NCBI GenBank assembly: GCA_016218065.1
Contig: JACRFA010000248.1
Location: forward strand, 1 to 40,969
Length of the DNA: 40,969 bases
Source of the DNA: Ignavibacteriota bacterium
GTDB taxonomy: Bacteria; Bacteroidota; Ignavibacteria; UBA10030; UBA6906
Direction of reading: 5' to 3'
The position numbers and the translations under genes were made by a program. The notes below the pieces were generated by a model. That model searched no databases. It saw only the letters and a list, made by a program, of their open reading frames with translations, and was not told where the DNA came from. Shown here in pieces: positions 16,769-16,956 of this stretch; the stretch's first letter is position 1; each line of letters begins with the position of its first letter.

Positions 16769-16956
16769 TCGTCACTACGTGACGATTGGGTGACCGGGCT
16801 ATTGCGCAGACCATGAATGGTCTGCCTAATATCATGCCGTCCCTACAGGACGGCCGTGCATGCAAGCTTGCCACGTAGTGGCAAAAACGAAATTAGCCCG
16901 ACCTTTCAAGGTCGGGTCAGATTGATGTACACGACCCGTCCGTCGCGTAGCGACGG
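16769..16956. repeat. Mirror-symmetric six-hairpin palindromic element (REP/BIME-like), element 1
   Basis: Hairpins 16769-16785 (7-3-7), 16806-16825 (9-2-9), 16837-16853 (7-3-7, closing C.A mismatch), 16868-16884 (7-3-7), 16897-16916 (9-2-9), 16940-16956 (7-3-7); loops TAC/GA/TAC then GTA/TC/GTA. Confidence 0.85.

What the first reader, a model, noticed from the sequence alone, without database searches (positions are those of the whole stretch)
16769..16956. Element 1: intergenic mirror-symmetric array of six hairpins with compensatory stem differences
Seen directly: hairpins A-B-C then C'-B'-A' with lengths 17/20/17 | 17/20/17 nt and spacers 20/11/14/12/23 nt, centred on the palindrome TGCATGCA (16857-16864). 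Loops are TAC, GA, TAC on the left and their complements GTA, TC, GTA on the right, so the right arm is an inverted copy of the left. Paired hairpins differ only in ways that keep pairing: A TCGTCAC-TAC-GTGACGA vs revcomp A' CCGTCGC-TAC-GCGACGG; B GCAGACCAT-GA-ATGGTCTGC vs revcomp B' CCCGACCTT-GA-AAGGTCGGG. Hairpin C has a C.A mismatch next to its loop. Spacers B-C (CTAATATCATG) and revcomp C'-B' (CTAATTTCGTTT) are alike. The pattern implies selection on structure in ssDNA or RNA. It lies between divergent gltA and sppA. Whether it has a published name is unknown to me.
Basis: seen in the sequence. Interest (0 to 1): 0.8.

Follow-up and report, generated by a model that had tools for sequence, protein, structure and literature searches.

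The report
Six-hairpin mobile repeat with transposase kin
The six hairpins are the core of a small DNA repeat, present at about 40 places in this genome, whose three-hairpin half-unit also flanks one branch of single-strand-DNA transposase genes in at least six bacterial phyla, where a published survey recorded no such partner sequence for that transposase subclass.

Summary
The hairpins are real, at the stated coordinates, and not chance. They form the core of a 292-bp element (16707-16998) found at about 40 places in this genome; copies keep hairpins while linkers drift. Junctions with empty copies of another repeat show insertion directly after TGA with no target duplication, as in IS200/IS605 elements. 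The element is two inverted copies of one unit: a 6-bp satellite hairpin, 10-13 nt, an NTAG foot with a 9-bp/2-nt-loop palindrome (a REP), about 22 nt, and a second satellite. A covariance model of the window family finds arrays beside Y1 transposase (RAYT) genes in related Ignavibacteria. Searching with that transposase shows the same unit, same spacing but different stem sequences, flanking its genes in Acidobacteriota, Verrucomicrobiota, Planctomycetota, Thermodesulfobacteriota and Lentisphaerota: 37 of 41 held-out transposase loci hit, 0 of 17 control loci; in a 35-protein clade all are positive. By its motifs the transposase is TnpA-Y1 subclass 1.2, for which the 2018 survey lists no REPs. 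So: a REP/BIME-type non-autonomous element of IS200-like logic, with a new architecture. Weak points: no cognate transposase in this assembly, no activity shown, and some copies sit inside unrelated inverted-repeat frames.

The parts
16707..16998 (.). Whole non-autonomous element (292 bp), GGGAATTG...GGTCAATAGGA
   Evidence: Junctions against empty copies of a host repeat (F) in the same genome; same ends in the near-identical copies. Exact edge uncertain by up to 2 nt (GG microhomology).
16704..16706 (+). TGA immediately 5' of the left end, read as the insertion target
   Evidence: Present in empty F sites (TTTGTCATTCTGA|GGCTCG) and 5' of the left end in 10 of the 11 copies with a readable left junction (AGCA in L003)
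16715..16729 (+). Left-end small hairpin AAAGGC-GTT-GCCTTT
   Evidence: Seen in sequence; conserved in near copies
16769..16785 (+). Hairpin A (left satellite, 7 bp, TAC loop)
16806..16825 (-). Hairpin B: left REP (9-bp stem, 2-nt loop), foot TTAG on the minus strand
16826..16829 (-). NTAG foot of the left REP (TTAG read on the minus strand)
16837..16853 (+). Hairpin C (inner satellite, TAC loop, C.A mismatch in this copy)
16857..16864 (.). Centre of symmetry TGCATGCA
16868..16884 (+). Hairpin C' (inner satellite, GTA loop)
16893..16896 (+). TTAG foot (NTAG, counterpart of the REP guide tetranucleotide GTAG)
   Evidence: TAG invariant in 18 copies; NTAG was the search criterion for 106 units (GTAG 49, ATAG 42, TTAG 13), and without that criterion TAG precedes over 80 of 93 hairpins
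16897..16916 (+). Hairpin B': right REP (9-bp stem, TC loop)
16940..16956 (+). Hairpin A' (right satellite, CCGTCGC-GTA-GCGACGG)
16976..16989 (+). Right-end small hairpin CCTGA-AGGA-TCAGG (CATGA-AGGA-TCATG in most copies: a compensated difference)

Best explanation
It is a non-autonomous, REP/BIME-like mobile element of IS200/IS605-type logic. Two inverted tripartite units (satellite hairpin - NTAG-footed 9-bp REP - satellite hairpin) lie tail to tail, with feet and inner satellites at the centre. The likely enzyme is an IS200-like Y1 tyrosine (HuH) transposase of TnpA-Y1 subclass 1.2. It would bind the REP hairpins on single-stranded DNA, use NTAG as guide, cleave, and join the element 3' of a short TGA-containing target without target duplication. 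Shown here: multi-copy family, conserved hairpins and spacing, insertion after TGA in a known empty sequence, and tight linkage of the unit to one transposase clade across phyla. Inferred: ssDNA binding and cleavage, the guide role of NTAG, and that this enzyme type made the copies here. The cognate gene is absent from this assembly, either lost or in an unassembled repeat gap.
For: About 40 places in G000; stems 96.6% paired while linkers vary. R1, built only from G000 copies, hits relatives beside RAYTs: G001:C31 (two arrays), G055:C16 (both sides), and weaker in G041, G036, G053, G037, G028, G021, G009. 80 named relatives of that RAYT: 2.1 hairpins/kb within 650 bp versus 0.23/kb beyond 1.5 kb. 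In 106 NTAG-REPs, the 5' satellite lies at 10-13 nt in 95 and the 3' satellite mostly at 18-28 nt; both satellites with stem >=6 in 38% versus 0.3% at control positions. R2 held-out: 37/41 RAYT loci, 0/17 control loci. Tree: a clade of 35 RAYTs (support 100/98) with every member positive; label changes 7 versus 38 shuffled. Whole genomes: 4 to at least 150 units in 19 of 20. Catalytic HxH, Y and WQ conserved; fold closest to ISDra2 and IS608 TnpA, then TnpA-REP 4er8. Insertion 3' of TGA in empty F repeats, no TSD. nfeD-flotillin spacer 65-73 bp in G001/G002 versus 587 bp with the element in G000. DNA fold gives separate hairpins.
Against: No RAYT of this clade in G000: only two more distant ones, 43% and 31% identical to the G001 enzyme, flanked by other arrays. 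Some copies lie inside ACTGATGTTACGCA inverted-repeat frames that also hold unrelated cargo, so part of the spread may be hitch-hiking. The NTAG foot is not kept in G055. Many F-embedded copies may come from one insertion that spread with F. About 20 units used to train R2 were chosen for having hairpins. No activity data.
Confidence: 0.82

Rival explanations
1. Hitch-hiker inside dsDNA MITEs: the six-hairpin array is passive cargo of terminal-inverted-repeat elements moved by a DDE transposase.
For: Some copies lie between inverted ACTGATGTTACGCA ends, and the same ends enclose unrelated sequences; the window subfamily sits in repeat F, which has its own inverted ends TTTGTCATTCTGA/TCAGAATGACAAA.
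Against: The window subfamily lacks the ACTGATGTTACGCA frame, and several copies (L008, L010, L012) are not in F but still end at GGGAATTG after TGA. It does not explain the linkage of the unit to one Y1 transposase clade across phyla.
Confidence: 0.15
2. RNA element: transcribed hairpins acting as regulator, terminator or mRNA stabiliser of neighbouring genes, with mobility secondary.
For: Strong RNA folding (z -7.3); divergent gltA-sppA position.
Against: Copies lie in many different gene contexts; no Rfam match at gathering thresholds; RNA parameters favour a fold-back rather than the conserved hairpins, DNA parameters the separate hairpins; conserved non-paired bases are NTAG and TGA.
Confidence: 0.08
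3. Mutational artefact: template switching at quasi-palindromes perfects hairpins without selection.
For: The B' apex is extended into nested hairpins in several copies; the right-end hairpin differs by a compensated pair.
Against: Cannot produce the same three hairpins at fixed spacing with an NTAG foot beside one gene family in distant phyla.
Confidence: 0.04

Closest known systems
REP / BIME / REPIN with RAYT (TnpA-REP) REPtrons (Nunvar 2010 PMC2817692; Bertels and Rainey 2011 PMC3116915; Di Nocera 2013 PMC3733652)
   Same: Extragenic palindromes with a GTAG-like foot, short TY loop and 9-bp stem, inverted (tail-to-tail) pairs, flanking a Y1 transposase gene, dispersed copies.
   Different: Each REP has two satellite hairpins at fixed spacing; the foot is NTAG; the enzyme scores as IS200-type (NF033573) and far below the cut-off of the REP-transposase model NF047646 in the homologues scanned.
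TnpA-Y1 subclass 1.2 (Quentin 2018, PMC6006769)
   Same: Motifs DHxH, WQ, Y---Q--HH, about 150 aa, conserved C-terminal tail.
   Different: The paper lists no REP for this subclass (101 proteins, mostly Cyanobacteria and Bacteroidetes). Here most members outside Bacteroidetes carry tripartite REPs; most Flavobacterium members do not.
IS200/IS605 elements and their non-autonomous derivatives (PATEs; the latter from general knowledge, not read here)
   Same: Hairpins near the ends, insertion 3' of a short target, no target duplication, TnpA fold like ISDra2/IS608.
   Different: No tnpA or tnpB inside; mirror-symmetric six-hairpin core instead of one hairpin per end.

Membership tests
REP/BIME mobilised by RAYT | Multi-copy extragenic palindromic repeat | tested here: met
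   About 40 places in G000; 4 to >=150 units in other genomes
REP/BIME mobilised by RAYT | GTAG/GTGG tetranucleotide at the 5' foot of the hairpin | tested here: inconclusive
   NTAG: TTAG in the window; in other phyla GTAG 49, ATAG 42, TTAG 13 of 106; not kept in G055
REP/BIME mobilised by RAYT | REPs in inverted pairs | tested here: met
   B and B' inverted, feet inside
REP/BIME mobilised by RAYT | Cognate RAYT gene flanked by the same repeats | tested here: met
   Met in G001, G055 and other phyla; not found in the G000 assembly
REP/BIME mobilised by RAYT | Cleavage of ssDNA REP by the transposase | not testable with these tools
   Needs biochemistry
Class 2 REP-associated tyrosine transposase (NCBIfam NF047646) | Enzyme scores over the curated cut-off (80 bits) | tested here: not met
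   No match for P0001/P0002; 21-24 bits for the two G000 enzymes; all pass NF033573 IS200
TnpA-Y1 subclass 1.2 | DH[IV]H, WQ, Y---Q--HH motifs and about 148 aa | tested here: met
   Alignment A2 against Table 1 of PMC6006769; their HMM was not available; the u residue of HuH varies (A/S/V/I)
IS200/IS605-type element | Insertion 3' of a fixed short target, no target duplication | tested here: met
   After TGA in F repeats with empty counterparts; same left context at other sites, one exception
IS200/IS605-type element | Encodes TnpA (with or without TnpB) | tested here: not met
   292 bp; no transposase gene within it
CGTC-tagged REPs (Di Nocera 2013) | Unpaired CGTC tag at one end | tested here: not met
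   CGTC lies inside the satellite stems
Known Rfam RNA | Match at gathering score | tested here: not met
   0 matches in the window

The most novel reading that the evidence does not exclude
TnpA-Y1 subclass 1.2 defines its own transposition system: a domesticated IS200-type enzyme whose substrate is a three-hairpin unit with fixed geometry, conserved across at least six phyla while its sequence has turned over, with satellites serving as extra binding or cleavage-positioning sites (TGA follows each satellite) not seen in any studied REP or IS200 complex.
Probability: 0.5. Interest if true: 0.8.

Novelty: new variant of a known kind. Interest (0 to 1): 0.7.

Why it matters
Subclass 1.2 Y1 transposases were described as lacking partner sequences and of unknown role. 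A protein search returned 7,899 homologues at E <= 1e-20 among the 8,000 candidates scored. This work supplies a candidate substrate with a geometry that can be tested in vitro directly, links IS200-type enzymes to REP-type repeats, and offers a covariance model that recognises the repeat family in Acidobacteriota, Verrucomicrobiota, Planctomycetota, Thermodesulfobacteriota and Ignavibacteria genomes.

Tried and rejected
DNA search of 59 relatives found no copy outside G000; only the covariance model did, because stem sequences turn over. An exact hairpin-B pattern in GTDB genomes gave 0 hits. gltA-sppA synteny is not kept in the G001/G002 loci fetched (no sppA beside gltA), so the orthologous spacer could not be compared; the nfeD-flotillin locus was used instead. 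A mechanical ORF-context census was too noisy to show orientation preference: 9 of 27 copies overlap a mechanical ORF, which need not be a gene. Literature searches found no description of the three-hairpin unit; the library holds only open-licence papers.

Full report
OBSERVATION. Hairpins with stem >=7 and loop 2-3 number 19 in the window against about 7 in Markov simulations; five fall within 190 bp here, while no simulation had more than two in any 190 bp. Single-strand folding is far stronger than shuffles (DNA z -6.4, RNA z -7.3). With DNA parameters the centroid is the six separate hairpins; with RNA parameters the arms fold back on each other.

FAMILY IN THE GENOME. A 251-bp query gives 43 matches in the 5.17-Mb, 319-contig assembly. 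A covariance model built from 18 copies (R1) gives 77 hits, many of them the same place on both strands because the element is self-mirrored; merged by hand they are about 40 places. Linkers differ freely and take insertions, while hairpins, the NTAG feet and adjacent bases stay. Within the genome the stems are mostly invariant: only 2 of 46 pairs have two-sided changes (B A-T to G-C, C C-G to T-A). So structure is conserved here largely through sequence, and the inter-arm 'compensation' in the finding is better seen as two REP subtypes.

BOUNDARIES AND INSERTION. Near-identical copies share ends GGGAATTG...GTCAATAGCA (16707-16998 in the window). Several lie in another abundant repeat, here called F, for which empty copies exist...TTTGTCATTCTGA|GGCTCGTTTTTCAGAGCC. 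In filled copies the same F sequence is split exactly after TGA and continues with GGCTCG, without duplication (292 bp in L001 and L002, 294 in L006). Copies not in F (L008, L010, L011, L012) also have TGA before the left end, allowing a 1-nt anchoring shift in L008 and L011; L003 has AGCA. This is IS200/IS605-like: insertion 3' of a short target, no target duplication. Caveat: F copies may descend from few insertions. Independent presence/absence: the nfeD-flotillin junction is 65-73 bp in two same-genus species and 587 bp with the element in G000.

LINK TO A TRANSPOSASE. Plain DNA search finds nothing in 59 relatives, but R1 finds arrays in 12 of them, and about 10 of some 22 distinct hit places adjoin Y1_Tnp genes from an independent Pfam search. 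The strongest, G001:C31 and G055:C16, flank two RAYTs of one subclade (58% identical). The G055 arrays keep the A-B-C-C'-B'-A' order with different stems. Searching GTDB genomes with an alignment of this RAYT returned 80 named loci from many phyla. Their flanks are nine-fold enriched in hairpins, and a common unit emerges by eye and by count: satellite (GTCGC-GNA-GCGAC type), 10-13 nt, NTAG, 9-bp palindrome with TC/TT loop, about 22 nt, satellite, then TGA. The window's right arm has gaps 12 and 22-23 and foot TTAG. The left arm read on the minus strand is the same unit.

TESTS. Twenty-seven units aligned from the window, G055 and named loci: 15 of 21 pairs have two-sided changes; covariation score 0.49 versus 0.127 shuffled and at most 0.11 in slid controls. 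Pairing percentages there are partly by selection. The held-out test is cleaner: model R2 hits 37 of 41 RAYT loci that were not used to build it (28 at 40 bits or more, counted by hand) and none of 17 control loci around gltA and nfeD/flotillin in relatives. On a 115-protein tree, one clade of 35 RAYTs (support 100/98), from Ignavibacteria, Acidobacteriota, Verrucomicrobiota, Planctomycetota, Thermodesulfobacteriota and Lentisphaerota, is R2-positive throughout; the label needs 7 changes against 38 in shuffles. About 20 of the 35 contributed units to R2. R2 finds 4 to at least 150 units per genome in 19 of 20 genomes, so these are dispersed families as well as flanks.

ENZYME. P0001 is Y1_Tnp, over the cut-off of NCBIfam IS200 transposase NF033573 and without a match to the REP-transposase model NF047646. 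HxH, Tyr, WQ and Y---Q--HH are conserved, matching subclass 1.2 of Quentin et al. 2018 (PMC6006769), where REP is given as 'no' and members as generally lacking IS200 hairpins. The model (pLDDT 84) resembles ISDra2 and IS608 TnpA first and TnpA-REP 4er8 next. In studied REPtrons the GTAG foot guides cleavage (PMC8266576); NTAG plausibly does so here. The satellites have no known counterpart; TGA after each and as insertion target suggests cleavage-site presentation. That step is inference.

LIMITS. G000 holds only two more distant RAYTs with other arrays; the cognate may be lost or unassembled. Another inverted-repeat frame (ACTGATGTTACGCA) encloses some arrays and also unrelated cargo, so part of the dispersal could be passive. 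No function was measured. 'First partner for subclass 1.2' holds only against the open literature searched.

Noticed in passing
window 29474-29722: A second mirror-symmetric hairpin array (AACCCT-ttc-AGGGTT, CCGAGGGC-gtt-GCCCTCGG, GTCCCT-ttc-AGGGAC, then mirrored) between inverted ACTGATGTTACGCA ends; weak R2 hit at 29514-29598 (E 8.7e-5); similar arrays at G000:C234 and C30.
   Followed up: partly
L239, L249, L245, L252, L253, L264 and others: An ACTGATGTTACGCA terminal-inverted-repeat frame encloses different interiors (element 1, the second array, unrelated sequence): a MITE-like family with changing cargo. 19 exact copies of the 12-mer TGATGTTACGCA.
   Followed up: partly
L269, L270, L274-L277; window flanks 16673-16706 and 16999 onward: Abundant repeat F (CTGCTAATGACGTGACATGAATTTGTCATTCTGA...TCAGAATGACAAATGGGAGCGCACGTCATTGCC...) that serves as insertion target for the element.
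   Followed up: partly
L031 1099-1807: RAYT gene of G000:C106 flanked on both sides by the same four-hairpin block (GCATGACCGTcaaACGGTCATGC etc.), a different array type from the window element.
   Followed up: no
L007, L008, L010, L015, L016, L021, L026 (hairpin B'): The B' apex is extended by inserts that themselves form hairpins (for example CCGAAGGGGTCCTTCGG), suggesting hairpin growth by template switching.
   Followed up: partly
L157 2300-5700: Desulfococcaceae bacterium HSG8: RAYT embedded in a long head-to-tail array of units with a repeat of about 70 bp; at least 150 units in the genome.
   Followed up: no
L102, L118, L162 (G055): In the Ignavibacteria genome G055 the foot is not NTAG (TTAA, TCAA, TTGG) though the three-hairpin layout is kept: a possible natural guide/target switch.
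   Followed up: no
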